Assembly: GCA_027596075.1 (NCBI GenBank)
Contig: JADGJC010000099.1
Location: 60,268-124,267 of the forward strand
Direction of reading: 5' to 3'
Length of the DNA: 64,000 nucleotides
Origin: Rhizophlyctis rosea
Taxonomy: Eukaryota; Chytridiomycota; Chytridiomycetes; Rhizophlyctidales; Rhizophlyctidaceae
Under the pieces are notes generated by a model. The model made no database searches. It was not told where the DNA came from and saw only the letters and a list, made by a program, of their open reading frames with translations. Position numbers and translations under genes: made by a program. Shown here piece after piece: positions 30,939-62,981 of the stretch (within the stretch, counting starts at the first letter, position 1; each line of letters opens with the position of its first letter).

Positions 30939-32602
30939 TCAGATCAACTCTGGGCCAAGACGAAGAGCAGAGAGCATTTTGTGCACAGGTTTTTGAAAGT
31001 GCTGGAGGATGAAGGTGGATGGACGACCGTTGCCGAAGTAGATTCTACGGCCTCTGTCGGTTGGTGATTTCCTGAGCACACAACTCTCGTAATCCCCACT
31101 ACGTCCTACAGGCCAAACATTCCAGGAAAAGCCGTCATCCCTGCCCATTTCCCCTTTACCAAAGTCAATCACCAAGTAATCGTCTGAAACGATTGTACTC
31201 AATAGTCCCTTTCCCACAAGATCACACGCGCCCTTGCCGATAGTTGGGCCACATCCCCCATTCAAAAGCTCCACCCGCCAGACCACTTCGTTCTCGTCCC
31301 ATCTGTTGTATGGATGAAGAAATCTGCTCCGCCGTCCCCGTAACTTCCTCCTCCCTTCTTGGTAGACACACCCAAACCACCCAAATCACCATTGACTGAC
31401 AAGACATCCATCGTCACCCATCCCGTGCCGGCAAGCACATCAACAGCTGCCCTATAAAACTCCATCCGGAAAACGCCGTCACTCGAGTTTCCACCCGTGC
31501 GTCCCAAACGTAAAGCTGAAGAATCAATGGCACCCAAAACATCGTCACAAAAGTGGGAAGTTCCGTGTAATTTTGACCAATGGTGGTAGAACCGGGTGTT
31601 GGGAAGAGCTCCTTCATAAGGTATTGACGCTGAAAGGGGGAAGAGCAACGAACTCGTTTGTCGAATTGTCTTATGTAAATTTCCAAGAACCCTTTGTTGA
31701 TAATGAATTCGTGGAGAGGTTATGTACGTGCAAGTCCCTTCAATGACCACCCTTTTCAGTTCCCCGAGGACATAATCAGGCATGGATATGAAGGATTGTG
31801 TTTTCACAATACCGCGGGGTGTTGTGATGGCATTGTAGAAGGTGAAGGATGACAAGAAAAGAAGGATGTCGTTTTCTGTTGGTGGTTGGTTCAGATTTGA
31901 AATGGGGAAGAACTTCCGATTGATAGCTTCCATACTATCTCGCAGCAAACCGGCGGATCCATCTGTCATTGCGTGCAAGGCAGATACTACTGCAGGTGTC
32001 AGTGCGTTTTCCAGGGATTTGAGTTTATTATTCCGAGGACCTCCCACCCATGCTGCTATGTATTCCCCTGTTTCCGCCCGAGTGAAGCGATGAAGATCAT
32101 TACCGCAGACGAGGTTGAACTGGAATGGCGTTTGATAGTTGATATTGATGTTGAGGATGTATGTGGTAGCCAGGACGACATGGCTGTTGACATTTGGGAT
32201 GCCACCGTACTTCCTGAGCGCCCGCCAAAATATCTCATCCTTATTTACTTGAACTTGTCCGTTAAGGAGTTGCACTTCATCACAGAGAATGAAGGTCGGA
32301 GTGGTGGTGCTTAGTGTCTGCTCGAAGGTTTCGCCATTGCAGGACTTTGCCCAAAAATCTTCAATGGACTGGTTGGTGTTACGATCGAGGAAGTTGATCC
32401 TCACAATGCGCTGGGGAACTGCAAGATTCTGCAAATGAGCTTCCAGGAGGGTTAAAAAGGCAGTCTTTCCGCGGTTGGGTGACGCTTGGATTAGGGCGCA
32501 TCTTTGCACCAAGAGTTCTTCGTAAAAACGGCTGACAACTTCTGGTCGGCGCATGCAGGTTGCTGCGGCTCGAACCCTAACCGTAACAGAAGATTCGCAC
32601 AT
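30939..32602 (-). pseudogene. Crinkler-like P-loop ATPase/nuclease gene with a frameshift
   Basis: An intronless frame from 32602 to 31262 encodes a P-loop NTPase: RPEVVSRFYEELLVQR leads into a Walker A-like ASPNRGKT, and Walker B is TFILCDEVQLL. The C-terminal region resembles the restriction-endonuclease-like domain of Crinkler (CRN) proteins, ending ADFFIH before the frame is lost near 31290-31320. The rest of the domain (VELLNGG and SDDYLVIDFGKG motifs) continues in another frame from about 31286 to 30939. No GT-AG intron explains the shift, so it is either a true single-base lesion or a sequencing error. CRN-type proteins are expanded in chytrids and oomycetes and are thought to act in hosts or in conflict between cells. 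Activity here is doubtful because the nuclease part is split. Confidence 0.65.
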
Positions 32603-33031
32603 TGAACACCACTATGATGTATTATTGGGGCTGCGATAACCATTACTTGTGTTACCAATTATTACTCACAAAATACTTGATTGCCCACCATCATGATGAT
32701 CTGGACACTTTTACACCTTTTTTCACCATCTCTTGGCGCGGATAAATCGCGGTCAAGCCAGTCCACCTCCATCCACAATCGCGATCCAGCTGCGCCAACA
32801 CGCGACGCGTTTCGGGGTCCGCAGGCTATGATGGTCACTGATGGTCATCATTACATGCTGAAGATGAGGTAGGCAGAAATTAGGTAATGGAACATGGAAC
32901 ATATAACAGTCTTGCGGTCTTGCATCCCAACTACAACCTGATGTACCAGCCAACAAGGATCCCACTCACTAGGAAGCACATCTCCCATGTTTAATTTCTA
33001 CACATAGTACACACCGCCAACTACTACCATC
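32603..33031. promoter_or_regulatory. Divergent intergenic region
   Basis: These 429 bp separate the Crinkler-like start from the gamma-CA-like start. I see nothing recognisable. Confidence 0.35.
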
Positions 33032-34132: not shown

Positions 34133-36767
34133 TCACTTCAATCTCAACTTAGCCCTCGTAGACCACGCTAACCCTCCCATCGCCAAAATATGGCAGAAAA
34201 TTCCCATAGCGCCCAGCACCGCAGCCAGTTGCCAAATCTCTCCCAAATGCGTTCTGAGAGCATATTGGTCCAGGATGTAGTCGCCAGATGGCGGGCAAGC
34301 AGCAACCGCCTGTCCGGCTGTTTCCGGGCATGAGATGACCAGACCGGTAAATTCGTTGGTGACAAAACCCTTGAAGGCGTAGGCGATTGGGGAGACCCAG
34401 TGGATCCAACGGAGTGCTAGGGGGATTGTGTTGACGTTCACGAGCATGCCGGCGAAGAGGATGAAGATCTGTGTGGGGTATGGTTCAAGATGTGTGAAAG
34501 GGTCAGGAACGTTGCAGCATGGAAACTTGAAGCGCCCAGCCAACGAGGGGAAAAGTCAAAACGACTAAATTTTCTCTTTGGATACTTACAATCAAGATCC
34601 CCGGCGCAGCAACATTCGCCGTTTCAATCTTCAATAAACTCCCCAAAATCATTCCCAACCCCGTCGCAAAAAGTACATTCAAACTCGCAAAACCCAGGAA
34701 GATGCCGAATTTCTCGGCGTTGGGTGTGAGGCCTACCACCCAATACAGTGACGCTGTTAAGACGAGACCCCAGAAAAGGGAGTTGATGAACTCCAGAAGG
34801 ATTTTAGCGATGTAGTAGGCTGTGCCGGAGTAGGAGCCGGCGTTGCGTTCACGGATTACAACGAGTTTTTCGAGGGGGAAGACGGCTATTATGGGCATGA
34901 CGTTGTCGAAGGTCTGTTGGTGGTGGAGGGGGTTGGTGGGGAGGGGACGGTGGGAATAAAAACGGGAGTTGAAATGTATATGAGTTTTGAGGCAGACCAA
35001 AGATAATCCGGATGCATACAAGGCCATTCCCACAAAAAGGAAATCAAAAACTCACCAACAAAGCCGTCAACATAAACAAAAATCCCAACCGATTCTGCAC
35101 TCCCGCCGCATCATTCCCAACCTTATAGAACAAAAATCCCATAAAAAGTAACATCACTACCGTCTTCCCAAACATAACGATCGTCTTTTCCTTATCACGC
35201 ACAAACAGGCGGAGGTTGCGGCCGAGGAGGATTCCGACTTGGGCAAACCAGTTCCTCCTGCTGTAGCGCGTGGCGGTAGATTGAGTTTCATAAGCAGTGG
35301 GCTCGTCGTGCAGAACGACGACAGAGGTCGGGTCTTGCGGGGGCGGGGTGGAGTTGTTGTTGTCGGCCGGGTGTTCGATGAGGTAGTTCATGATGAAGTC
35401 GGCGGGGTTGGTGCCTATGGGGCAGATATGGCCGCGGTTTTCGAGGGTTGTGAGGCATTCTGTTTTGAGGGGTTTGGACTTCCTATTAGAGATTCGTAAA
35501 ATACCGTTTTGCCGCAGAAGACTTCCTTACCTTGCAAACTACCAGAAACAACCACCCTCCCATGACTCATGAACAAGAACTTGTCAATAAGGCCCAAAAT
35601 ATCTATACTGGGCTGGTGGATAGTCATTATTGCGCAGCGTCGTTCTTGAGGGTCTTCGAGGAGCTTCTTGACGATGTTGACGACTGTGAAGGCTGAATGG
35701 GAGTCTAGACCGGACTGGTGCGGTCCGTCAACGAAGGGGTGAGAAGGAGGTAAGAGATGGATGAAGACAGCGATGAAGAATATACGTACGGTGATCTCAT
35801 CTAGGAACATCACACGAGGACGGGTGACAAGTTCTACGCCGATGGAGACACGACGTCGTTCACCGCCTGGATTGGATGGACGTGAAGAACAATAATGGAT
35901 GATGAATGATGTATACTGATTTGGTCTCCTCAATTGTAACAACTTCGCCCATTTCAGCGCATATTCCTACCCTTCTCCCTTCACCGTCGTACCCCCACGC
36001 CCACTCCCCTCCCTCACGTTCTGAACCCCAAAAAACTCACCAGAAATTCCCCGCCGCTCCTCATTTCCAATATACGTCTCACTCGCCTTGCTCAATCCCA
36101 ACTCCTGAATGATCCTCTCCACATTGTCCTTGATCTCTTTCGTCGAGGTCGAGGGCGGAGAGCGGAGCCGTGCGGCGTATTCGATCGTTTCGCGGACGCT
36201 CAGTTTGTCGAAGAGGACGTCGGATTGTTCCACTGTTGGGAGTGGTTTAGATGTGCCAGGAGCGTATGTGATACGTGGTATGCGAATTACGAACCGTAAC
36301 ATGCATCATTCGTCCACGTCTTTGTGGACCTTGCGACACCGTCCAGTTTGATCTCACCGGTCACTGTGCCGACGGAGAACCGACCTGCAAGGACTGGAAA
36401 GGCATACCACAGACATGTAAGTTCATTTCTCTCGAAAAGTTGTGATTTGAGACGTATGACTCTTTCCAATCTCCCTTACCGTTCAACAAAGAGCTCTTGC
36501 CAGCTCCCGATGATCCCATGATGGCAAGTAGCTCTCCTGAAGCCACGGTTCTGAGAAGAAGATTGCATTGGCCTTGCAGTTAGCAAAAATGTGCCCAATG
36601 AAGAATACCAGCAGACATCTCCCAAACAAATCTTACCCAGAAACATCATCCAAAATGGCTCTAGGTTTGACCTTCGAGTCCTTCCCCAACGAAAATCGAG
36701 CACCTCCTAGGCGGTATGTAACATTATCGAAAGAAAACAGAGGACGCGTAGTTGGTGGATTTGCCAT
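34133..36767 (-). CDS. ABCG-family half-transporter (White/ABCG type)
   Basis: The start at 36767 (MANPPTTRPLFSFDNVTY) opens the nucleotide-binding domain: Walker A is MGSSGAGKSSLLN. Q-loop VEQSDVLFDKLSV and the signature ISGGERRR are formed across an intron (GGAATTTCTG|GTGAG...CCAG|GCGGT). Walker B is RVMFLDEI, then SGLDS and the switch MTIHQPS. The membrane domain follows from about 35.4 kb (TIVMFGKTVVMLLFMGFLFY, VMPIIAVFPLEKLVVIRER, NAGSYSGTAYYIAKILLEF), and the conserved G-family ending is RWIHWVSPIAYAFKGFVTNEF. NBD-then-TMD order and one copy of each make it a half-transporter that must dimerise. ABCG proteins export sterols, lipids and hydrophobic natural products. It is next to the terpene cyclase, so export of the cluster's product is plausible but inferred. 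Confidence 0.88.
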
Positions 36768-37549
36768 TGTGTCTTTTGCTCCCTGCTATCGAGAACTGAC
36801 CCGCTCAAGCTAGCGGAAGATGCAATATGTATGAGAGTTGAAAAGGTGTAAATCTAGGCGATTGGGCAGTATGCACGGGATAAAGTTTGAATTTCGAGAT
36901 GATTCATAGATGAGCTGGTGTGGCCGGGCTTTCAGAGCACCAAACACTAGCTTGTGGATACTGCAGGGCTTTGAACATGGCTTGGGTGTTTTGAACGCTG
37001 GTATCCTTGGCAAGGTGGAGGGATCTGTGCTATGGGGGGAATGCCTGGTTCATCTCAGCCAAGACATTTGTTGGTCAACGGGCATGATCACTATGATCCG
37101 AGAACTGTCTTGATGAAGGCGTTGATGATTGGATTTGAGCGATTTGTGACCGGTGTTGCCCAAGTTGCGCCATCGCAGAGTTTCTTTTGGTGTTGCACCC
37201 TTCGCCTGCCCCGACTTCTCGGAGGCGGACTGCCGGAGTTGTTCGGACCTCCGAGTTGGAGCTCACTTTAAGTCCACAACTTGCAGGGTTGCGAACCAGT
37301 CCAACAGTTCTCCGACATGATGGAGGGTGACAGCACATCGTACGTAGCTGTTAGCGAGAATGATTGCTGAACGCTGACTGGCATGAACCCAGCAAATGTT
37401 GGTGACATCAAGTTTCAAAGGCAATGCAAACATTCTTTGACATATACATGATATAATGGAAACATTCTTTACAACGTTCTATTTATGAGCTTGAAGTGGG
37501 AAATATGCCGGCTCTCACCACTCTAATACAAAGGGAACATACAAACAGA
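36768..37549. promoter_or_regulatory. Intergenic region upstream of ABC transporter
   Basis: These 782 bp include the ABCG promoter and the 3' region of the terpene cyclase. No gene is recognisable. Confidence 0.4.
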
Positions 37550-38320
37550 TTACGCAGCCTTCTTGATATGAGCAGACTCCCCTTCACCACTTCCCTCCGT
37601 CTGTTTAGCAGCCGCCTGAAGTCCAATCCATTTCGATACAACCCCATCTCCTTTCTCGTATTTAATGCTCGCCACAAGGCCCACATAAATGCAATCAAAC
37701 ACCAAAATCAACACCGCCAACACTATCATACTCCTCGTCGTAGCTAAACCAAATTCCTCCGGCCACAAGACAGCCTTCGTCCACCAAGCAACAATGATAT
37801 TCCCCGTTCCCAAAAACTTCGACACCGCAATCCCAAGACTCTGTCCCCGCAAAGACTTCCGATTGAACAGCATAGCGATGAAGGAAATGGAAAGCGTGAT
37901 GTTGACCAAGTAACCCGTAATGATTCCCGTATCGACGCCGAGGGGTTCATAATCAAGCACAAAACCCGTGATGAGGAAAAAGGACGCAATGACACCGGTG
38001 CCAGCAATGAGGCCGAGGTTGTTTCTGACGAAGGGGACGTGTTCCCATTCTTTCCTGCCGTATTTGACCGTTTGGTACATCATCCCGCAGTCGATGAAGA
38101 ACCAGGAGATGGAGACGAAGTGGTGCGGGCTCCATGGGGCTTTGAGAGGGTGGATGGTGGAGTAGATGAATTCCCAGGCGAGGTTGAGACAGATGCCCGC
38201 TAGGGGCATGCCGTATGTCTTTTCGCGGCCATTGCGGAGGAGGAGGTCGATGTAGGTGTAGTTCCATAGAATGCAGCCTAGGGCTTCCCAGTTGGAGATT
38301 TGGTCTAGGGTAATGGGCAT
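37550..38320 (-). CDS. PaxB/Pyr4-type integral-membrane terpene cyclase
   Basis: This single-exon protein is 256 residues from the ATG at 38320 (MPITLDQISNWEALG). The frame stays open to an earlier ATG at 38419, which would add one hydrophobic segment. The family of fungal membrane cyclases closes epoxide-opened prenyl chains in indole-diterpene and meroterpenoid pathways. Seven hydrophobic helices are visible. The tell-tale block is EKTYGMPLAGICLNLAWEFIY, with the conserved Glu after Trp that protonates the substrate in characterised members. WFFIDCGMMYQTVKYG and WTKAVLWPEEFG also fit the pattern. Length is close to the family's roughly 240 residues. It lies between the ABCG transporter and an NAD(P)-binding reductase, all on the minus strand. 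Confidence 0.7.
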   Translation of the reverse strand: MPITLDQISNWEALGCILWNYTYIDLLLRNGREKTYGMPLAGICLNLAWEFIYSTIHPLKAPWSPHHFVSISWFFIDCGMMYQTVKYGRKEWEHVPFVRNNLGLIAGTGVIASFFLITGFVLDYEPLGVDTGIITGYLVNITLSISFIAMLFNRKSLRGQSLGIAVSKFLGTGNIIVAWWTKAVLWPEEFGLATTRSMIVLAVLILVFDCIYVGLVASIKYEKGDGVVSKWIGLQAAAKQTEGSGEGESAHIKKAA

Positions 38321-39256
38321 GATGGAGGATTTGGACCAGAATAACTCTGAAACACTACCAGCGAAGGAGGTGAATAAGCATGTGATAGCAGGGCAAAATG
38401 CAAAATAATTGACTTCCAATACTTCAATACCATCCTTACCTTGAACAGTGAATGTAAATCTCAGCCAGCGACGGCGCAGAAAACTAAGACTTATGCAGTC
38501 TGAGGGCGAATTTTTTCACCGGTAAGGTGCAAGGAGCAAAAGCACTGAAGAATATGGACGCGCCTCGAAGATGTGCTCTTTGTGGGGCGAAAATGAGGAC
38601 CCGCACCAACACCGTACTAAATTTGATACCGGCATCAGCACTGCAAACACAACAGGGCCCAGCTTACGCGCCTAGGGTGCGCCCAACTACTCCACAGGCA
38701 TACTGCGGCCCGGATACTATGAACAGAAAGCCCGCAGAAAACTTTCATGGGGAAGGCTGCCGGCGCTTCTCATCGTTGCCCGAGCTTGTTATCGTGGTGT
38801 CTCCGTCACCAGAGCGTGAGGTGACGGTGAGGTGAACGATCACCCGGAATGGGCTTGGGCACAGCATCCGGAGTTCAAAATTTCTCGAAAACTCTAATCT
38901 GGTGACATACATGACTGATCACTATTGGTGCAAAAGAGGGTGAGAGATGAGCCCATATAGGTAAGCCCTTGGATCACAAAAGGTGGGAAAGGAGGTTGAC
39001 ATTTGTGATACAGCCGATAAGGGAACCAACCACGGCTTGTCTCCGAGACTCCGCTATACCTCCGATCCTCCGGGTGCCACTGACGCCACCTCGATTGCTG
39101 ATCGGTCACCATCTCCATCCAGGGAATATCCAGTTGGAAAAACTAGATTGCAAATGGACTAACATGATATTTGATAGGGAGAAATACTAATATCCATCTA
39201 TTTACTTCTACATCATTGAAATCTATTGTAATACATCATGTGCGGATGGTGATACC
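38321..39256. promoter_or_regulatory. Intergenic region upstream of the cyclase
   Basis: About 0.9 kb holding the cyclase promoter and the 3' end of the reductase. No other coding sequence is recognisable. Confidence 0.35.
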
Positions 39257-40043
39257 TCATGTACTAATGACGTTGATGGCCTTCCCCCAAACGCCAGTGG
39301 TCTTGCCCTCAAGGATATCCAAAGCCACCACCGCAATGTCCCCTCTCTTTGTCGACGCTGTGATCACTGCCTCCGGAGAAGTCTCATCCTCAATAATCTT
39401 GATCTTGCTGGCTGAAGACGATGCACCGTCGCTGAGGGTTGCTGCACGGAGAGCCACCCACTTCTCAAGTGGAGAAGAACGCAGGGAGGTTTCGAGGGAG
39501 CGTTTGTCTGCCAAGATGTTTTTCCTGGAAGAATAATATGTCAGAATCATCTAGGACCTGTTGCGATGACATGGAAACCTACATGAAAAAGGGGACGGCC
39601 AGCTTGCGGTACCACCAAGGTTGGAGTTCAAGCGAAGCTTCTGAAGTTCCAATGTTGCTGATTGTGATGAGTGGGATGGTGGGAGGTAGAACCTTCGTGA
39701 TTGCCTTGCCGAACCGAGCGTTCTACGCACAACTCATTAGTCAAACCCAAGATGCCTTATCTGCTGTTCGGCACAATCGGCGAAGACCACTCACCGGTAG
39801 CACCTCTACAGAGTTACTGTATTTCCCGCCCAAAAAGCTCAATACTCCATCAGCACCCTCCGTAACCTTCTTCAAATCTTCCTCTTTTGTAGCATCACCC
39901 TTCACAACCGTGACTTTTGCTTGAGTCTTGAACTCAGATTCGCCCGAGCGAGTGAGAAGGGTGACTGAGTGGCCTCTCTCCAGCGCTAGTTTAGTGGCAT
40001 GAGCGCCGATGGGACGGGTTGAGCCTAGAATTGTGACCTTCAT
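39257..40043 (-). CDS. NAD(P)-binding Rossmann protein (NmrA / biliverdin-reductase-B-like)
   Basis: Three exons: from the ATG at 40043, then about 39593-39720, and 39257-39527. The first reads MKVTILGSTRPIGAHATKLA, with a nucleotide-binding Gly pattern in which the usual GxTGxxG is GSTRPIG. RGHSVTLLTRS, VVKGDATKEEDLKKV and GADGVLSFLGG follow the order of atypical short-chain reductases such as NmrA and biliverdin reductase B. Exon junctions LP|NARFGKAIT and FFM|KNILADK keep frame. The C-terminal part (KRGDIAVVALDILEG) is the usual end helix. No catalytic Ser-Tyr-Lys is clear. It may reduce a pathway intermediate or be a redox sensor; the role is inferred from location. Confidence 0.7.
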
Positions 40044-40900
40044 TATGGTGCAGATGTAAATATGGGTTGAATATTGTAGGATCGAACTTGACAAACGGAA
40101 GCGGTTTTGTGAAGTTAGGAAGAAACGGGAAGCTAAACGATCTTTTGCATGCAACTGCATGCGCTGACAGTCACCACAGCTCATCAGCCGTGAGATTTCT
40201 TCCTGGATTGCTGCCCGGATTGTGGCGAATAAGAGACTGAACACTCAACGGCTGCGCCTGACGTCCAAAGCAACACGACGAGTGGAGGCGAATAAGGTGG
40301 TGGGACATGATGAATAAGGTTGGCTTACCTGCGGGCATCGGGCTCAGCGAGTAACACAACGGCGGTTCCCAACTTTCCGAAGCCAGTGGACGGGGACGCG
40401 GTACTTGAGACCTCAAACTCGCCCGGAGCTTTGTAGGTGAAGCCACAATGGCGTCAGCAACAGAGAGAACATGAAGGATGTGTTCAATACACTCACTCCA
40501 GGTCTACTCGTGTGTGTCTGAATTCGGTGTATATCTGTGTTCATGGGGGCTTCCTAGCGGGACCTGTGCTTGTGTCCATTGGAAGATTTGAAGTGATTGC
40601 GTCGTGGGTGTGTGTATGCGAGGCTGGTCTTGGCAGGAGAAGACTCGGATAGCATTACCGAGGAAGTTGTGAAGTCCATTACACCAATCAGAATGTTGAA
40701 CACATCGATCGTATCCGGGGCAGCCTCAGTCTCCACAACCACTTCCCATCAGTTGCGCACAATCGGGCTAATTCGGGCGATGCGCCCGTTCGCAGATCGA
40801 CTGACCCGAATGCTTGAATGCAGGGCATTGTCTTCTTAACAGCCATCGTCTGCCTTGCCATCGCTACGCATTCCACACAACCATCAGTGAGAAGAGCATC
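40044..40900. promoter_or_regulatory. Divergent intergenic region, reductase / lipocalin-like
   Basis: These 857 bp separate divergent starts and should carry both promoters. I see no coding sequence I would trust. Confidence 0.4.
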
Positions 40901-41411
40901 ATGGACTACGAAGGCATCTGGTCACTTTGTCACGATGAATCGGACTTTCCGGACGAAATGCTCGCTAAGCAAGGTGCATCCCTTGGAAGCCTAGCAACAT
41001 TCCAAAGGGTCCATGCATGTGACATTAACATCCTTTATAGGCCTCCCATGGCTAGCTCGCGTAGCAATCAAGCGCGCCCCGATGACCATAACCATCACAT
41101 CAACTCCCGCGCCCACAACACCAACAGTCCTCACAATCAAACCTCCCTTGGGTCCCGCCACCACTCTCATCTTGAACGGCGAAAGTCAGCGCACCACCTT
41201 CCCTGTGACGGGTGTTGTCATCCATAGCACTGCGTATGTAGATGAGAACAATAGGATTGTAGAGAAGCAGGAAGGCGAACAGGGGGATTGGTCGGCCGAG
41301 ACTGTGTGGGAATTAGTGGATGGGGGACGGCGGCAGAACCGGTTGGTCAAGTTTGTTGATGGGGAGGTGAAGAAGGAGTATAGGGCTGTGTTTAATAGAA
41401 AGAACTTGTAA
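40901..41411 (+). CDS. Small lipocalin/FABP-like protein
   Basis: Two exons, 40901-40973 and 41041-41411, join in frame to 147 residues (AAGCAAG|GTGCAT...TTTATAG|GCCTCC). The protein starts MDYEGIWSLCHDESDFPDEM, then LAKQGLPWLARVAIKRAP. The pattern GxW...SD..D..L..QG..WL.R.AI matches a fungal family with a lipocalin or fatty-acid-binding-protein barrel as I remember it. The following short strands alternate (MTITITS, LTIKPP, TLILNG, GVVIHSTAYVDEN, VKKEYRAVFNRK), and W is conserved before the Arg-rich RRQNRLVKFVDG. Such barrels bind hydrophobic ligands. It is convergent with the FMO and close to the cyclase, so it could carry a cluster intermediate; that is inference. Confidence 0.55.
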
Positions 41412-41725
41412 AGGTGGTTCTTAATACTATTGATTCGCAAACATACATGTAAGAATGTACAAGTCCAATGTGCAATCGGAATCTTGAATACAAATAGGAA
41501 TGAACTATCACAGAAATGGGGTCTCTCACAAAACGTTGCGCTCTCTTCAGCCTCGAGTTTAATACGAATAGATAACCAAAAAAGTTTTTCATCATGTTCA
41601 TATTGCGGCTTTCCAGAGCCTAATACATAGTTTACACCTCGTGGTCACAGACACGGAGGAGTCATAGAAGCTACCTCTGTCTAATACATGTGCTACACTA
41701 CCGTCCACCGAACTTCTCTCGTATA
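41412..41725. other. Convergent intergenic stretch
   Basis: These 314 bp lie between the 3' ends of the lipocalin-like and FMO genes. I see nothing recognisable. Confidence 0.4.
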
Positions 41726-43620
41726 TCATTGAGCCGTCAACGTTGCTAACCTTTCCTCCCTACTCAGAGCCCTTTCCTCGCCAACACCCTTATAGTTCCT
41801 AGGCCAATACGGCGCAAACATCTCCCACACCCACCCACCCGCCCGTTCACAAGCAACCTTCATATCCCCCAACAACTCATCACAATACATAATCCCATGA
41901 TACCCCAAATGCACACCCTTCTTCCCACGGTCATCAAACACACGAATCTGCCACTCCAACAGCTCGTCCACCTCCTTTTCGATTTGGTCTTGATCCGGCA
42001 GCGGGATGGCGTTTCGGAAGTATTCTGCGAGCCAGTGCGCGGAGACTTCCATGACGGTTGGGTTGTTGAGACTGTAGGAGAAACCGTTGAAGGCGATGTT
42101 GTGGGCGGCGTTGTTGATTGTTGGGGTGGGAATGAGGTAGCGGTAGAGCTTTAGGTGCGTGGCAATGGAAGGGTCTTCGGGTGTTGCTTGAATGGCCAGC
42201 CGTTCGAGCGTTTCGGGTTTGAAGAATGGGAATGCCTATTTGTGAATGGAAGCGACTTGATTTAGAATTTGCCATCTCAGAAGGGAAACGAGTGGACCCT
42301 CTACCAGTTCGTATCCAGTGGCATAAACAATGCAATCCGCATCAAGTTCCACGCCGTGCCCTTCAAGAGTTCTCACAATCACCCTTTTCTCTTTCACTGT
42401 TTCGATCCCACCTCTACAGATTCCCAACCGCTTCTCCTTGATGTTATCAAAGAACCCAGGCGGCGTAACGTGCGACAAACCGCTCGTGGCCACGGCAAGC
42501 GGTAAGTGGGGGAGAGGGTTCATCTCCGCGATGTTCTGTTGACCATTGGATAAGATGAAATCCCACTCGGCGGCCCAAAAGATTCCTCGGCAGATGGTGC
42601 GGCCGAAGGAGGTGTTGTGGAGGAATCGTTGCATGGATGAGGTTTGGTTTACGAAGGGGTGGAATAGTTCCTGGTGGTTGGAGGTAGTGGTTGAGTGTAC
42701 AGAGCAATCGCTGATATGGTGATTCCAGACATACTAACCAACAATCGAGAGAAGAAGAACCACTTATACCCGACAGTCCCATAGAAAATCTTACGAGGCG
42801 CCAACCAATGAGGTCGCTTGAACACCATGACAACATCTCCATTCCGGTTATTTGCCACCATGTTAGCAACATCCACCGCGCTCTTTCCCGCCCCGACGAC
42901 TACTACATTCTTCGTCTCGAGCATCTTTTGCCGCTTATCCGCAAGCCCCAGCTCACACGAATGCAGAATCGTACCCTTGAATGACTCGATACCCGAGAAA
43001 GTCGGAATATTTGGACGTTGGTACATCCCAGCACAGACGACCAGGAAGCGGTAGTAGCGTGTTTCGGGCTCAACGTCGAGGTCTTTTGTAGGTCGAGTGG
43101 TGATTTTCCAAACTGATTTCGACTCGGTGTCCACAATGGACGCATCAAGCACCATAGTGTTGAGCTTCAGAACGCGGTCGACGCCAAATGTCTTCGCGTA
43201 TGAGATGAGGTAGGCTTGTAGGCGGTGAGCTGGCATGTGAGTGTCCTCTCCTTCTTCGGGGACATAAGGGAAGTCCGAGAACTCATAAGTGCCCGTGGCG
43301 TTATTCGTTTGTAAGCCGGGGTAGATGCCTTTAGAATGGGATGAGTTGGATGCGTGGACAGCTGCAATGTGGCACGACGCAAAACCTACGCTCATCTGCC
43401 CATACTCCGCCAATGCCGTGATGTTTTTCCAGCACCGTGATTGTGGTGAAGAAGTCGGAGTCATGTTGGAGGAATGTCTTCGCGGTGGTTAGACCAGCTA
43501 CACCTATAGTATGTTCGAAGTTAGGTTGGTTTGTCCTGCTCAAGCTTCGTTGTTCCAAACATCACCAGCGCCGATGATGCACACGTCCGTCCGTTCCGCG
43601 GCTCTTGCTGCTGAATTCAT
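41726..43620 (-). CDS. Flavin-containing monooxygenase (class B FMO)
   Basis: The enzyme would insert one oxygen from O2 using FAD and NADPH. Exon 1 (43566-43620, MNSAARAAERTDVCIIGAG) joins exon 2 at 43503 to complete the FAD loop GAGVAGL; then TVLEKHHGIGGVW. Further on come YPGLQTNNATGTYEFSDFPY (the FMO TNxP/FSDFPF block), VVCAGMYQRPNIPTFSG and KNVVVVGAGKSAVDVANMVA for NADPH. DCIVYATGYE is the conserved ATGY. The frame changes between GGVW and YPGLQTN; a GTAGGT...TTGCAG segment at 43362-43389, only 28 nt, would restore it. The C-terminal exons run to the TGA at 41726. It is divergent from the prenyltransferase across 1.4 kb. PaxM-type epoxidases of indole-diterpene pathways are a different flavin family, so any epoxidase role is a guess. 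Confidence 0.85.
43362..43389 (-). other. Candidate 28-nt micro-intron (or frameshift) in the FMO gene
   Basis: Read on the minus strand, this segment begins GTAGGT and ends TTGCAG. Removing it joins the conserved GGVWADE stretch to HASNSSHSKGIYPGLQTN in frame, which is the order expected in FMOs. It is far shorter than the other introns here (about 60-370 nt). A single-base sequencing error would have the same effect. Confidence 0.4.
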
Positions 43621-45035
43621 CGTGATGCGGTAGTGATAGTAATAGATGATGAACTGCGACTGATTTCAAAGTCAAGACTGAAGTGCCGATGAGGGTGAGT
43701 GTTTTGAAATATGCTCCCCAGGTAACAGACATGCGATGAGCGCGCAACCAGAGTCTGACTCTCCCCAGACAGCAATGAGTCGTCCGATAACCGAAACATC
43801 AGCTCGGATGAAGGGATGCTGCAGTGCTGTCTTGTGTCTGCCGAGCTGAGTGAGGCTCATTACTTGGTAGGGGAGCGGGGATCGGGGAGGTCTTGCCTTG
43901 GTAAGGGCGCATTACGCCCTGCATCCGAGTGAACATAATTCGATGAATCAGCGTAGGACGCAAGGTCATCTTGTGTCCTCTGAGATAATTGTAATGCCGC
44001 CCTATAACAACTCAAAAATATCAGAAAGCCCTTTCCGCCCGTCAGTAGTAATTTGTAAATTGCACCAAAATTCCGGTACCGATTGCTGTGTTCGGGTTGG
44101 AGACCGGAGACCGAAGACTCCGAGGCAAGGAGGCAACTCCCTCAAAACACGAAGATCGCGTCTTTCCCCCAGCCCTGCTCGTAGCCTGGAGGCCTGGAGG
44201 CACGTATCCAGTCAAGGTTTTCCTCCTACTTCCCGGGCGTGGCGCATTCAAGTCTCTTTTTGCTTTTGACGAGACCGGCAAAAGGCAATTCAATACGGGG
44301 CCTGAAAAGATGGTGCAAAATCAACACGAAATGGTCAAGGCTCAGATGCGCCCATGCGTTCACAGAGATACCAAGGATGGTGCGTCGATGGGGGATGGCT
44401 GGCGGGCTGCCACCATCTGTGTGTTCATCAGTGGAGGTTGTGTACGAAAGAAAGAGCGGAACAGCACTCAGGGCGGGACCTCGACACGTAGATTGCAGAG
44501 ACTATGATGAACACAAATGTGCCGCGGGAACTCCACTCGCCACAAATTGCACCATCCGTTGGTGATAACCGAGTTTGTTCCTCGCTGTTTGGTCATCTCA
44601 GGTTTTGAGAGCCCTCAAGGCAATCTCCTAGTGCAACCTTTGCGAGGTTCGTCATGCATGCGCTGGGCAAGGGCAACAGACTCAGCCTCACGACTGACTG
44701 CGGATGGTCAAAAAAATTCCGCTGCAATGAAAAGGGTTGTAAAGCCACGGACAACATTGTATCACACGGGCAATGCTGATGTGTCAAGAGTTTTGATGAT
44801 TCTTGGGCTAGTTGTTATCTAAGTGTTCAAGAACTGATCACTGTGTGTGGGATGCCAAGGGCGGCCCAGTTTTTTGTGGATGCTCAGACGACTATATGAA
44901 GTTCGGTCGTCCCAGACGAATCGGAGAACAGCTCAATCATCCCACTCATCTCGTCCAATCTTTGCATTGTGAAGCAAGACTTCTCATCATTCAATAGAAT
45001 CTTTCATCTTCCTCATTCTCGAAAAACAATACATT
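43621..45035. promoter_or_regulatory. Divergent promoter region, FMO / prenyltransferase
   Basis: These 1.4 kb separate the FMO and prenyltransferase start codons. Shared regulation of the two pathway genes is plausible. I found no coding sequence and no repeated motif I would trust. Confidence 0.4.
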
Positions 45036-46269
45036 ATGGTCGGTCTCACTGTTTACCCTACGGTCCTGAACTGGCTTTCCCTAGGCTGGTATAAACAGAA
45101 ATCCGATTCTACCCAAGTCACCATTCCTGACGCAACGAATGCGAAAACCAACCCGTTCGCCTACCTCTACCGCTTGTACGGCAAAAGGCAGCTTAACAAC
45201 ATCCTAATCACCCTCAACCCCTCCCTGAAACGCTACCCGGAGCAACTAAGACTCTTGAATGATGTGCTGGACACCATTCATACCGCGGCAATCCTCGTGG
45301 ATGATACCCAGGATGAGAGCACGTCGAGGAAAGGGGTGAAGACCGCTCATGAAGTTTTCGGGGTGTTTCCCACCATCAACAAAGCGTACACTCACATCTG
45401 GTCGGCGTTGATTCGCGTATGTAATCCTTTTGCTAGATGCTCAATCTCATCACCACCTCATCCCCTCTTTAACTCTCCCCAGCTCTGCCGTGAAGACCCC
45501 GCCCTCCTCGACGACGTCCTTACAGGGCTTTTCGAAATCCACGTCGGTCAAGATGAAGGACTCGCATGGCGTCGGGATAACTACCTGCCCACCGTTGCAG
45601 ACTTCGTCAACAACGCTGAAATGAAGACTGGCGGCATCTTCCGGATCGTTGGGCGTGTGGCCTTGCGCAACACCTCGGCGGACGACGCTATGACTGCATT
45701 GGGTCTTTGGGCTCAGTTGCAGAATGACTATAAGAACCTTTGGTCTGATACGGCGGCGAAGAACAAGGGCATCATTGCGGAAGATATTGAGAACGGTGAG
45801 TTGTTGCCTTTGAACATCAATCGTTCAGAACGTGGTCGTGGACGACGTGAACTGATCTCAAAAACCAATCACGTGTATCAATAGGAGAGCGCACCTTTCC
45901 CATTGTATACGCGCTCAACCATCTGGAGCCAGCCAAGAAAGCTCTTCTGCTTGAAGCACTCGACTTGGCAGCTGCCACCGTACGTCACACCCCCCTCTCC
46001 GCATACAATTGCACTGTGATACCCATCCTTCATCAACCCGTTACAGAAAGATTCGACCATCAAGTTCCAAGCGCTCGCCTTAATCGAGGAGGCCGGTGCT
46101 CGCGAAGCAACTCTAGAATACCTCGCCAAGATCGAAGAGCAATACAAAGGGGTTATTGAGCTGTGGGGTCGTAATGAGCATAAGGTGGGGCATTGAACTG
46201 CGAGTCCTTCCGCGTTCACCTTTTGAAATACTGACATATGTTCCGCATCAACAGGAACAAAAGTCGTAA
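45036..46269 (+). CDS. GGPP-synthase-like trans-prenyltransferase, divergent second motif
   Basis: Five exons join in frame to 313 residues: 45036-45416, 45483-45795, 45885-45979, 46047-46184, 46255-46269. The family builds C20 prenyl diphosphate from FPP and IPP, or transfers it to an acceptor. The first Asp-rich motif is intact: AAILVDDTQDESTSRKG, followed by AHEVFGVFPTINKA, as in fungal GGPP synthases. KTGGIFRIVGRVAL fits the next block. The second Asp-rich motif, normally DDYxNL in a Gln-Ile-Arg-Asp-Asp context, is QLQNDYKNLWSD, so its first Asp is Asn. ENGERTFPIVYALNH closes the active site region. The altered motif is compatible with a GGPP synthase of changed specificity or with a PaxC-like prenyltransferase that uses GGPP. 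Divergent from the FMO. Confidence 0.82.
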
Positions 46270-55679: not shown

Positions 55680-58123
55680 TCATCCACGCACACTCAACAA
55701 TACTCTCACACCACCTTCAATCGTAGTCGTAACCCCTCCCTTATACTTGAACGCCTGTCCAGGCACAAGCTCAACATTGAAGTTCCTCAACATCTGGATA
55801 AGTGCAACCTTTGATTCGATAAGGGCAAGTTTGGCCCCAATGCCTAGACATATGATATTGATACAGAATGATAAGTTGTTGATGTGAAGATGGCGTGCCC
55901 ACGCAAGAAAAAACTCACAATTATGCGGCCCATCACTAAACGGCAAATAACTCCCCGCAACGGGGGCAGGCCGTCCCTCCGCAAACCTCTCCGGATCAAA
56001 CTTCTCCGGTTCGTCCCAATACCGTGGATCACCGTGCAATTGTCGAATGGGGAGGTTGATGAGGGTCTGGAGGACACAAGAGATTACCAAGTATTAGTCA
56101 GGCAACAGGAAAAACAGGCAAAATCAGGACAGTGGAAAAATACCCACCCCCTTCGCGATCCTATGCCCCATAATATCCATATCCCTCCTGGTCCTCCTCC
56201 CCACCCCACCAACAACAGTATGGAACCGTTGCGTTTCCTTGATAGTCTGTTCCAAATACCTTTTACAACAAAACGCAAACGAAGAAATTAACTTTGTCTC
56301 CATCAGCGACAACTCCCTTGATCGCACTCACCTGAATGCCGGCAACTTCTCCAACGTCAACGGCGCGTCCGACGTTGGCAGGTTTGTTTCGATTTCAGTC
56401 ATAAGTTTTTGATAGACAGACGGGTTGCGGCAGAGTTCGAGGAAGGTGTACATGAGGGTGTTGGATGTGGTTCTACATTTTCATTTGGAAAAGGAAAGGT
56501 GTAAGTGGGTTACAACGCATGTGGTACAACCGTGACAACTAGAAAGCCAGGGAGGATAGAAAATGCAAAAACAACATACTCATGCCCCGCAAGGAAAAAA
56601 CCAACAACTTCCTCAAACAGCTCTTCATCCGTAAACGACTGTTGTGACACACAAATACACAGTCAACCCAACTACCCATATCATCATACAAGTCACCATC
56701 CCCTTTACCTTATCCATCATCTGATCCAGCAGATCCCTGCGTCCTCCAACGTGTCCCGCCGCCTTCCCGGCCCGCTTCTCCCGTATGACGTCCGTGACAA
56801 TGGTCTTGAGATACGTAATAGCCTCCGCTACGTCCGGCGTGCTTGTCGAGAGGCCTAAGAAGCTCCACAGGAGGGGAGGCGTGAAGATGCGCTGGTGTGT
56901 ATGGGAAGAAGCGTGAGTGTAATGAGTCTTTGTACATAGCAACGTAATATCCTCAAAAGCAGTAGATATCATAACCAAAGGGAAGAACGAGGAAACGGGA
57001 AACCTTAGGAAGGCCAACCGCGCAAACTGACCTTAGCAATAATCATGAAGATGCTGTTAAGAAGTTCGACGTCCTTATTCATCTCCTCTTTCTCCAATGA
57101 TGCCGCCGTGTGGAATTCGTATGAGAAGGCCAGTTTGCCGCTGACGAAAACACAAGTCAGCATGCGGAAAAGAATGACAATCAGCCGGGCAGTACGCATT
57201 GAGAAAAGAAAGTGCTGTCCTCGTTTTTGTTTGGTGACGAGGAAACAAATCCCACTCCGTCCCAACCTCCGTCCTACTTCCGAATCCCTCATCGTCAGAA
57301 TAATCCCATTCAAACATACTCACATAACATCAACAGTAAACGCCGCCATTGCCTCATAAATATCCATCTCCACTTTCCCACCTTCCGCCCGCCCACACCG
57401 ACTCTTCAAAGCCCCGCACAGATCCTCAGCAGCTTCAAGCGACGCCTCCATCCCAAACCGCAGATTAGCGGGCGAGAAAGCTGGAACGAGGACTTCGCGG
57501 TGGCGTTTCCAGTTCTGGTTTGTGGGCATGGCGAAGAGCATTGATGGGAAGATGAAGCTGGACATGCGGAAAGTGGGATGAGCGGGAGGGCAATTTGGTG
57601 TCCAAGTTTTGGAATTTGGGGAAGCAACTCACGGGAAATTACTCCTCCCACTACCCGGCACATCCCTCCCAAAATCCCCATCAACCCTCGTCTGCGAAAG
57701 CACCATCTTCGCCGTCTCCGCATCCCGAATAATAACCATTTCTAATCCTCCAAAATTCACCCGGTATATATTTCCATACCTCTCCAAGAGCGTGTTGGTC
57801 CATTTGTAAAGTTCGCCGGTTTTGATGTATCTGCAGTACGGGCCGGGAGTGAGCAAAAGAGGGTGTATGATATTGGGGGTGAAGTTGACAGTGGCGGTAA
57901 AAGTCTAGAGGGAGAGTCATATCGATACGTACGGCAAAGCCTCAAAGAAACTCCCGAAAAGAGGCCACTCGAACGGACCGGGGACTGTGCCGTTTCGTTT
58001 GTAGCGTTTGGGGATGAGGAGGGTGTAGATGAGGTAGGAGGTTGCTGTTACTGTTGCGGCGGTTAGGAGGGCGGTTTTGGGTGGTGGAATGGGGATGTCG
58101 CGGAGAGTGCTTAAGAAGGGCAT
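55680..58123 (-). CDS. Cytochrome P450 monooxygenase
   Basis: The start at 58123 (MPFLSTLRDIPIPPPK) gives an N-terminal membrane anchor (TALLTAATVTATSYLIYTLL), then a basic and Pro-rich hinge (GPFEWPLFGS). About eight exons are needed; the first three, 57933-58123, 57633-57830 and 57324-57557, join in frame. The I-helix is EEVVGFFLAGHETTSNTL with the AG-x-TT oxygen-activation motif. K-helix QTIKETQR carries ExxR, FDPERFA is the PERF block, and the heme loop LPFSDGPHNCIGAKLA is completed across an intron (T|GC). ER membrane enzyme with the active site on the cytosolic side. The I-helix and heme loop look like CYP3/CYP4-type E-class P450s; substrate unknown. It could oxidise a terpene scaffold made by the locus at 37-46 kb. 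Confidence 0.9.
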
Positions 58124-61062: not shown

Positions 61063-62981
61063 TCATTTCGCCAACACACCGTCCTTCAATTTATACTTAA
61101 ACTCCAAATCACCCACAGGACCAATGATCCCAAACCCAAACCTCGATTGATCCATAGGCGGCAATTCCGCCTCACTATCAACCTTCACATCAAGTGCATA
61201 TAGCAGCATGGCAATCAGGGTTTTGATCTGTTGAGAATCATAATTCATATCAGCATCGGGGTGAAAGGGTTAAGTGGTCCGATACGACACATACCTCATT
61301 TCTTGCCAAAAACCGTCCGGGACACAACGTGGTACCACCACCAAAGGGCAAATGCAGTTGGCGTGGAGCAGCTTTCCCGTCCGCACTGTAGAACCGGTAT
61401 GGATCATATTTCATCGGTTCAGGGTAGATGTCCTCATCTATGTCACGAATGTAAACAAACAACTCAAGAAAATAAATAAACAAAAGCACACCACGACACT
61501 CCACACTCACCAAAATGCACATGATGCGACGAAATACCCACAATATCCCCCTTCCTAACTCTAAACTTCACCCCATTCTTGAAATCCAATTCCTGATCTG
61601 CCTTCGAAACTCGCAACGACAGCGACGAGGATGCGAGGCGGAGGGACTCGGAAATGCATGCGTCGAGGAAGGGAAGTTGTTGGAGGTTGATTTCTAGTCT
61701 GGCGGAGAGATTCTCGTTGTTCGTGCTGACTGCTTGAGCAATTTCTTCTTCTACTTTGACTCGGATGTCTGGGTGAGTGAGGATGTGTGCTAGGGACCAG
61801 AAAAGGCCGGGCATGGCGTTTGCTTGCTGCGAAGGTATGCATGAATTAAAATCGGTCCCAAGCAGCTTGCCGACAAAAAAAGAAGTCCACAGATGACTTA
61901 CGGCAGCCCACAGAATGGTAAACTCCAGTCTCCCCGCAACCAATGTGCTCGCCTCATGCTTCTTCAGGGTTTCGCTACGACTCTGAATGAACTTGCTGGC
62001 ATTTTCCAGCGTTTTCCCTCCATCCAATGTACGCCTCGCCATCATTTCCGCCTGCCGCCGCTGTGCAAGTCGCGCCTCCTTCAACATGAAGTCCGGCATG
62101 CCCGCTGCGGCTAGTGGGAATTTGCTGTCTAAATTATGCAAGACGCAGTTAGCACGCTTCCCAGCAATGTTACACCTTTCAGATCACTGGCCACGGGGAG
62201 CCATACCGAAAATAAGAAAATCCTTGTAAATGTCATCCGCATCAAATCCATCTCCGAAGATAGTGGCGAGGTTCGCATCGAAGAGCCAGCGAGAAGCATC
62301 AGCCCAGACTTTGCCGGTGATATAACCTTCCCCATCAATGTGCGCGGGGTTTAGTGTTGTGCCTGCCCGCAAGAAGATGCCCTCGAGGATGTGCTGGTAT
62401 TTGAGCGATTGACCTTTGAGCGTTTCTGGATCGTGGAGGAAGCGATAGTGGGCGCGGAGGTGGTGGTTGAAATCCTGAGGAGGGTGGTATGAAATGGATT
62501 TCGAACGAATGGACTGGCAAGTGAATGGAGGGAAAGGACCCTTACCATGGCTTTGGGACATTGAAATCCCGTCTCCAAGATGTTCTGCTCAATCTCATCA
62601 AATTGTAGATTCTTGTTCCGGTAGAACGCCGGTACAGCCGCAGGATCCAGCACGAACGTCATGCGCTTTCCCGCGAGATAGACGGTAAAGACAGGACCAT
62701 GCTTCTTTCTGAAGGGTAATCTCGACAATCAGCCAGGTAACCAAAAGAAGCAAAGGAACAACCCCTCCAGTTCCTCACCTTGCCTCGTTCATGAACTTCG
62801 CCGGGTCTTTCCCATACTCTGCAGCCACACCAAGATACGGCACATATCCAGCCAAAAGGGGTGCTTCACCGTCCTTCCGCCATCGTTGCTTGCTGATCAC
62901 AAGCGCGACAGTCGAGAGGGCGGCCACGGCCGTTGCCGAGACCAACTGTGTTACGGTTGGGACGAAAGACGATGCATCCAT
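61063..62981 (-). CDS. CYP7/CYP8-like cytochrome P450
   Basis: The start at 62981 (MDASSFVPTVTQLV) leads into an N-terminal anchor (ATAVAALSTVALVI). About seven exons. The conserved order is PYLGVAAEYGKDPAKFMNEAR, KHGPVFTVYLAGKRMTFVLD, the I-helix LWAAQANAMPGLFWSLAHIL, the K-helix ACISESLRLASSSLSLRVS, DPYRFYSADG and the heme loop LPFGGGTTLCPGRFLA. The I-helix has no acid-Thr pair; it carries Asn instead, a hallmark of the CYP7/CYP8 group (sterol 7-alpha-hydroxylases and prostacyclin synthase), as does the GGGTxxCPGR loop. Those relatives act on sterols or rearrange peroxides. The substrate here could be a sterol or a terpenoid from the nearby locus. ER membrane location is expected. Confidence 0.85.

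What the first reader, a model, noticed from the sequence alone, without database searches (positions are those of the whole stretch)
34133..46269. Candidate terpenoid biosynthetic locus in a flagellated fungus
Six adjacent genes fit one pathway: ABCG exporter, PaxB/Pyr4-like membrane terpene cyclase, NAD(P)-binding reductase, lipocalin-like barrel, FAD monooxygenase and a GGPP-synthase-like prenyltransferase. Two P450s lie 10-17 kb away. PaxB-type cyclases, prenyltransferases, flavin oxygenases and P450s are the usual kit of indole-diterpene and meroterpenoid clusters in filamentous fungi. Such clusters are rarely reported from zoosporic fungi. No polyketide synthase or indole prenyltransferase is evident, so the scaffold could be a new type. 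The grouping is an inference from adjacency.
Basis: partly seen in the sequence, partly recalled or inferred. Interest (0 to 1): 0.88.

Follow-up and report, generated by a model that had tools for sequence, protein, structure and literature searches.

The report
Chytrid indole-terpenoid gene cluster candidate
A soil chytrid fungus carries close together a membrane terpene-cyclising enzyme and an enzyme of the type that joins a terpene chain to indole, so it probably makes an unknown terpenoid; such a pair in this species was already pointed out in print in 2024, but its product is unknown.

Summary
Six intact genes lie at 34133-46269. The contig is Rhizophlyctis rosea: the spliced prenyltransferase is 100% identical over 313 aa to NCBI protein HDV00_012834. 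The cyclase is a Pyr4-type terpene cyclase (PF25129, E 2.6e-40) and the only one found in the genome.

The main correction: the "GGPP-synthase-like" gene is a PaxC-type indole prenyltransferase. It carries the published PaxC hallmark, DDxxD plus NDxxN, and groups with PaxC-like enzymes such as TerC and IdtC at 100/100 support, on a long branch. The ordinary GGPP synthase is on contig C279.

Missing from the classic paspaline set are a PaxM-type epoxidase (no PF01494 match on the contig) and a PaxG. A class B flavin monooxygenase, a reductase, an ABCG pump and two P450s are nearby. "Lipocalin" is not supported.

The pairing is not a new discovery: Tang et al. 2024 (PMC11109268, section 7 read) name a Pyr4-like plus PaxC-like cluster in R. 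rosea JEL0764. Product, expression and synteny are untested. I judge it a new member of the indole-terpenoid cluster kind.

The parts
34133..36767 (-). ABCG half-transporter (NBD then TMD), 9 exons, 605 aa, intact; possible exporter
   Evidence: Splice model; ABC2_membrane pieces over cut-off, ABC_tran piece below its cut-off (E 0.0018). Membership in the pathway inferred from adjacency only.
37550..38320 (-). Pyr4-type transmembrane terpene cyclase, single exon, 256 aa, 7 predicted long helices; conserved acidic residues E50, D77, D209
   Evidence: PF25129 E 2.6e-40; sole match in genome; E50 and D77 in 47 of 47 and D209 in 44 of 47 rows incl. itself; model pLDDT 90
39257..40043 (-). NAD(P)-binding reductase-like protein, 3 exons, 218 aa
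   Evidence: PF13460 E 8.6e-23; model
40901..41411 (+).
   Evidence: No Pfam match better than E 0.27; best PDB E 1.2; next match in the genome E 0.019; single-sequence model of exon 2 pLDDT 38
41726..43620 (-). Class B-type flavin monooxygenase (FMO-like), 5 exons, 544 aa
   Evidence: PF00743 E 2.2e-33, PF01494 only E 0.13; nearest solved structures are ancestral FMOs, E 3.8e-23; next match in the genome E 4e-8
45036..46269 (+). PaxC-type indole prenyltransferase (GGPPS fold), 5 exons, 313 aa; motifs DDTQD and NDYKN
   Evidence: 100% identical to HDV00_012834 [Rhizophlyctis rosea]; relatives include TerC, IdtC, JanC, AtmC; motifs; tree 100/100 with 18 PaxC-like rows
55680..58123 (-). Cytochrome P450 gene (approximate ends, not spliced), possible tailoring enzyme
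   Evidence: PF00067 E 8.7e-18 on one exon; genome search; ends read from frames
61063..62981 (-). Cytochrome P450 gene (approximate ends, not spliced), possible tailoring enzyme; heme motif FGGGTTLCPGR
   Evidence: PF00067 E 1.4e-13 on one exon; genome search; ends read from frames

Best explanation
The locus is an indole-terpenoid biosynthetic cluster of the chytrid Rhizophlyctis rosea. Inferred route: the PaxC-type prenyltransferase joins a C15 or C20 prenyl diphosphate (GGPP from the separate housekeeping synthase on C279, or FPP) to indole-3-glycerol phosphate, giving a 3-prenylindole. The seven-helix Pyr4-type cyclase then protonates the chain through a conserved acidic residue and folds it into rings. 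Because no PaxM-type epoxidase is near, the trigger is either a bare alkene or an oxidation made by a P450 or by the class B flavin enzyme. The flavin enzyme, the reductase and perhaps the P450s decorate the product, and the ABCG pump may export it. Shown here: gene identities, family membership of cyclase and prenyltransferase, conserved motifs. Inferred: acceptor, chain length, order of steps, product, and which neighbours take part.
For: Cyclase is PF25129 Pyr4-TMTC, E 2.6e-40, with N46, W49, E50 and D77 invariant in 47 of 47 rows and seven long helices in the model. The prenyltransferase has DDTQD and NDYKN; [quoted passage not shown] N208 of NDxxN is N in 36 of 41 relatives (the other 5 are gaps or unalignable there) and D in 3 of 3 GGPP synthases; D151 is D in 41 of 41 and G in 3 of 3. 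In the tree the locus enzyme joins 18 PaxC-like rows (chosen from the 41) at 100/100; forcing it with the GGPP synthases is rejected, p-AU 0.014. The genome has its own canonical GGPPS (C279) besides FPPS- and COQ1-like genes, so this is not the housekeeping copy. No ketosynthase or UbiA match on the contig. In a survey of 1990 fungal genomes, 131 of 1050 Pyr4-type clusters carry a PaxC-like gene, which that paper ties to indole sesqui- and diterpenoids (PMC11109268 section 7). P450s can supply the epoxide (AscE, ZigK; PMC13307353).
Against: Two of the four genes needed for paspaline (paxG, paxM) are missing here: no PaxM-type PF01494 epoxidase on the contig (only 20 of 39 candidates scored) and no in-cluster GGPPS. 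The prenyltransferase is only 30-36% identical to 11 PaxC-like enzymes compared (24-28% to three GGPP synthases) and sits on a long branch, so acceptor and chain length may differ; its place within the group is unresolved and the bootstrap had not settled. No expression, chemistry or synteny data. A phosphatase and a homeodomain gene separate the P450s from the block.
Confidence: 0.64

Rival explanations
1. The prenyltransferase kept the PaxC fold and motifs but uses a non-indole acceptor, so the product is a new kind of meroterpenoid.
For: Deep divergence from ascomycete PaxC-like enzymes (30-36% identity, long branch). Tang et al. write that the cluster could make an unprecedented meroterpenoid, because the cyclase is distant from known ones.
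Against: Relatives named after known enzymes (TerC, IdtC, JanC, AtmC) belong to indole-diterpene pathways (other rows there bear general names such as GGPP or FPP synthase); the signature residues are kept.
Confidence: 0.16
2. The prenyltransferase is a dedicated prenyl diphosphate synthase and the cyclase folds a free (non-indole) terpenoid.
For: PF00348 fold; the best solved-structure hits are GGPP synthases and fungal terpene synthases; several relatives carry the source name GGPP synthase. Two basidiomycete Pyr4-type clusters lack any prenyltransferase and may use a plain polyprenyl substrate.
Against: NDxxN instead of DDxxN/D; placement with GGPPS rejected, p-AU 0.014.
Confidence: 0.1
3. 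Only the cyclase and prenyltransferase work together; the flavin enzyme, reductase, small protein, ABCG and P450 genes are bystanders.
For: Grouping rests on adjacency; genes of the block stand 0.3-1.4 kb apart on both strands; the nearer P450 lies beyond a phosphatase and a homeodomain gene, the farther one also beyond a NUDIX gene.
Against: The flavin gene lies between the two core genes and has no close paralog. Two P450 genes this near would be unusual at random, P about 3e-4 for a 40-kb stretch with about 29 P450 genes (my count of the 47 matched pieces) placed uniformly, though P450s often occur in tandem.
Confidence: 0.1

Closest known systems
Rhizophlyctis rosea JEL0764 Pyr4-like plus PaxC-like cluster noted by Tang et al. 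2024 (PMC11109268)
   Same: Same species, same two core enzymes; the genome has one Pyr4-type match, so it is almost certainly this locus
   Different: The text I read (section 7 and passages) gives no coordinates, neighbours or motifs for it; strain identity is inferred, since the NCBI protein name gives species and locus tag only
Paxilline/paspaline pax cluster (PaxG, PaxC, PaxM, PaxB; PMC3760044)
   Same: A PaxC-type prenyltransferase near a PaxB/Pyr4-type cyclase; P450s nearby
   Different: No PaxM-type PF01494 epoxidase on the contig and no GGPPS in the block; a class B flavin enzyme instead
Bacterial Pyr4-like pathways (zigralone zig; PMC13307353)
   Same: Pyr4-like cyclase; shows that a P450 (ZigK) can supply the epoxide, and cyclisation by ZigF is proposed to start at the terminal alkene of a substrate that also carries an epoxide
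   Different: zig uses a UbiA-type prenyltransferase and a TPP enzyme; of the 80 prokaryotic loci with related cyclases kept here, 1 has a polyprenyl synthase-like ORF and 0 a similar FMO in the DNA held (about 15 kb per locus on average)

Membership tests
Pyr4-like transmembrane terpene cyclases (PF25129) | Profile match above the curated cut-off over most of the length | tested here: met
   138.9 bits against cut-off 27, positions 24-219 of 227
Pyr4-like transmembrane terpene cyclases (PF25129) | Seven transmembrane helices (recalled) | tested here: met
   Seven long helices in a pLDDT 90 model; prediction only
Pyr4-like transmembrane terpene cyclases (PF25129) | Conserved catalytic acidic residues (Glu in the W-E motif, Asp near the C-terminus; E63/D218 of Pyr4 are recalled, not from a call) | tested here: met
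   E50 47 of 47 and D209 44 of 47 rows, the query itself included; that they correspond to Pyr4 E63/D218 is by recall
Pyr4-like transmembrane terpene cyclases (PF25129) | Place in a tree with characterised fungal cyclases | not tested
   No fungal Pyr4/PaxB sequences were obtained; Tang et al. call the R. rosea protein distantly related to known ones
PaxC-type indole prenyltransferases | First motif DDxxD, second motif NDxxN instead of DDxxN/D | tested here: met
   DDTQD and NDYKN; definition from PMC3760044 passages
PaxC-type indole prenyltransferases | Groups with PaxC-like enzymes, not with GGPP synthases | tested here: met
   100/100 with 18 PaxC-like rows; GGPPS alternative p-AU 0.014; long-branch caution, three GGPPS rows only
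PaxC-type indole prenyltransferases | Transfers GGPP to indole-3-glycerol phosphate | not testable with these tools
   Needs an enzyme assay
Paspaline-type indole-diterpene cluster | PaxM-type class A FAD epoxidase in the cluster | tested here: not met
   No PF01494 match on contig C634 among the 20 of 39 candidates scored; the local flavin enzyme is PF00743
Paspaline-type indole-diterpene cluster | Dedicated GGPPS (PaxG) in the cluster | tested here: not met
   One PF00348 gene on C634, the PaxC-type one; GGPPS on C279
Polyketide-terpenoid cluster | PKS gene beside the cyclase | tested here: not met
   PF00109 at three loci, none on C634
Lipocalin / fatty-acid-binding barrel (small protein) | Profile or fold match to a calycin barrel | tested here: inconclusive
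   No Pfam hit better than E 0.27; FABP homolog at E 1.2; failed model

The most novel reading that the evidence does not exclude
An indole-terpenoid pathway rooted in the zoosporic fungi that works without the PaxM-type epoxidase: a deep-branching PaxC-type enzyme makes the prenylindole, and a divergent single-exon Pyr4-type cyclase starts ring closure from a bare alkene or from an oxidation by a P450 or class B flavin enzyme. This would give a scaffold type not known from Dikarya, and would mean the prenyltransferase-cyclase pair is either older than the chytrid-Dikarya split or was put together twice.
Probability: 0.3. Interest if true: 0.65.

Novelty: new member of a known kind. Interest (0 to 1): 0.42.

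Why it matters
According to Tang et al., all characterised fungal Pyr4-type cyclases come from ascomycetes. A cluster in an early-diverging chytrid bears on how old the PaxC-Pyr4 partnership is, and offers a cyclase and a prenyltransferase far from characterised ones. Because the two core enzymes are intact and the cyclase is single-copy, the question can be put directly to in vitro assays and culture chemistry. The locus has already been pointed out in print, which limits the surprise.

Tried and rejected
Lipocalin label: Pfam, PDB sequence search and a single-sequence model of exon 2 gave nothing usable, so it is left open. Bacterial origin of the cyclase: of the 49 proteins at E <= 1e-3 (the window's own included) the three that name an organism are bacterial, at 27-34% identity; most of the rest are unnamed. 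The gene has no intron where about 2.7 would be expected from its neighbours (P about 0.07). But one search finds only proteins sharing exact words with the query and names no chytrid, although Tang et al. count 12 chytrid clusters among 1050; no fungal cyclases were available for a tree; and the chytrid protein scores higher on PF25129 (139 bits) than all 8 relatives scanned (53-117 bits). So transfer is neither shown nor excluded. The 80 prokaryotic loci kept (of 126 confirmed) rarely carry a polyprenyl synthase-like ORF (1 of 80) or an FMO like this one (0 of 80), so their context does not help. The GGPPS reading of the prenyltransferase was tested and rejected, with long-branch caution. 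A search for a print source of the catalytic residue numbers of Pyr4 listed none (10 of 80 listed). NCBIfam gave no match for the cyclase. A larger first tree (38 rows, 8 fragmentary or odd rows dropped) gave the same GGPPS split but no outgroup root.
Full report
Identity of the source. The window is bases 60268-124267 of contig C634 (124,267 bp) of a 44.1 Mb, 634-contig assembly. My spliced model of the prenyltransferase is 100% identical over 313 residues to 'hypothetical protein HDV00_012834 [Rhizophlyctis rosea]', recorded on a contig of the same length. The strain is not stated; JEL0764 is inferred from the match with Tang et al.

Anatomy. The six genes are intact, with GT-AG introns of 58-174 bp where present. 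The block runs from the stop codon of the ABCG gene (34133) to the stop codon of the prenyltransferase (46269), exactly the coordinates given. On the right follow a tyrosine-phosphatase-domain gene (PF03162), a homeodomain gene, a P450, a NUDIX-domain gene and another P450. On the left is a hexapeptide-repeat protein.

The cyclase. It is a Pyr4-TMTC (PF25129, 138.9 bits, cut-off 27), the only match to that family found in the genome. In an alignment of 47 rows (46 relatives and itself) P39, N46, W49, E50 and D77 are invariant and D209 is kept in 44 of 47. The AlphaFold model has mean pLDDT 90 and seven long helices. No solved structure matches by sequence at E up to 1.

The prenyltransferase. 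The genome search found four PF00348 genes (8 matched pieces). From their exons I read C112 as COQ1-like, C185 as FPP synthase-like and C279 as a canonical GGPP synthase, with IDDVED and RDDYMN; the fourth is the locus gene. It has DDTQD and NDYKN. In PaxC the first motif (DDISD) conforms to the consensus and the second, NDXXN, does not (PMC3760044 passages). Across 41 relatives that I aligned (those of at least 260 aa; P0114 left out), N208 is N in 36 (two gaps and three rows that do not align there) and D151 is D in 41, while the three GGPP synthases have D and G at those places. The tree puts it with 18 PaxC-like rows, chosen from the 41, at 100/100, and a grouping with GGPPS is rejected (p-AU 0.014). 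The branch is long, its place within the group is unresolved, and the bootstrap had not settled. Relatives named after known enzymes are TerC, IdtC, JanC and AtmC; others in the list of 65 carry general names such as 'prenyl transferase', GGPP synthase or FPP synthase, or none.

What is not there. On contig C634 there is no PF01494 epoxidase among the candidates scored (20 of 39), no ketosynthase, no UbiA enzyme and no Trp_DMAT gene (one lies on C457). The flavin enzyme matches PF00743, and its nearest structures are FMOs. PMC13307353 (parts 1 and 2 of 3 read) says that the epoxide that primes such cyclisations typically comes from a flavin-dependent monooxygenase, with P450 AscE as the single exception before its own P450, ZigK; it proposes that ZigF starts by protonating the terminal alkene of a substrate that also carries an epoxide. 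These are workable models for a cluster lacking PaxM.

Prior work. Tang et al. 2024 (PMC11109268; section 7 and passages read) surveyed 1990 fungal genomes and wrote that R. [quoted passage not shown] As this genome has one Pyr4-type match, that is almost surely this locus. Searches on chytrid secondary metabolism (25 of 63 listed), on R. rosea genome papers (5 of 5 listed) and on indole diterpenes with Chytridiomycota, Rhizophlyctis or paxC (15 of 79 listed) showed no other paper that, by title and start of abstract, describes it; I did not open those others on this point.

Relatives of the cyclase. Of 126 confirmed prokaryotic loci the best 80 were kept; 1 of 80 has a polyprenyl synthase-like ORF and 0 of 80 an FMO like this one in the DNA held. 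Best-segment identities run 25-36%; the three best rows are Ktedonobacteria. A transfer from bacteria is not shown.

Judgement. The most likely reading is an indole-terpenoid cluster (0.64), already noticed in print but, as far as these searches show, uncharacterised, that differs from the classic set by lacking the PaxM- and PaxG-type partners. Chemistry, expression and synteny are untested.

Noticed in passing
[not shown]
   Followed up: partly
G000:C457:5789-6824 (+): The same genome has a Trp_DMAT-family indole prenyltransferase gene on another contig (E 3.2e-22).
   Followed up: no
G000:C35:104944-112000: A PF01494 flavin monooxygenase gene and a ketoacyl synthase (PF00109) lie about 5 kb apart; possibly another biosynthetic locus.
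   Followed up: no
window 10570-11730 (-): A TPR exon whose best Pfam match is IF140/IFT172, with other TPR models close behind, in keeping with a flagellated fungus.
   Followed up: no
window 31262-32611 (-): Open frame of 449 codons without any Pfam match at E <= 0.001, next to the hexapeptide-repeat gene.
   Followed up: no
L061 (Streptomyces sp. CB02923): Only this one of 80 prokaryotic loci has a polyprenyl synthase-like ORF in the DNA held near its Pyr4-type cyclase.
   Followed up: no
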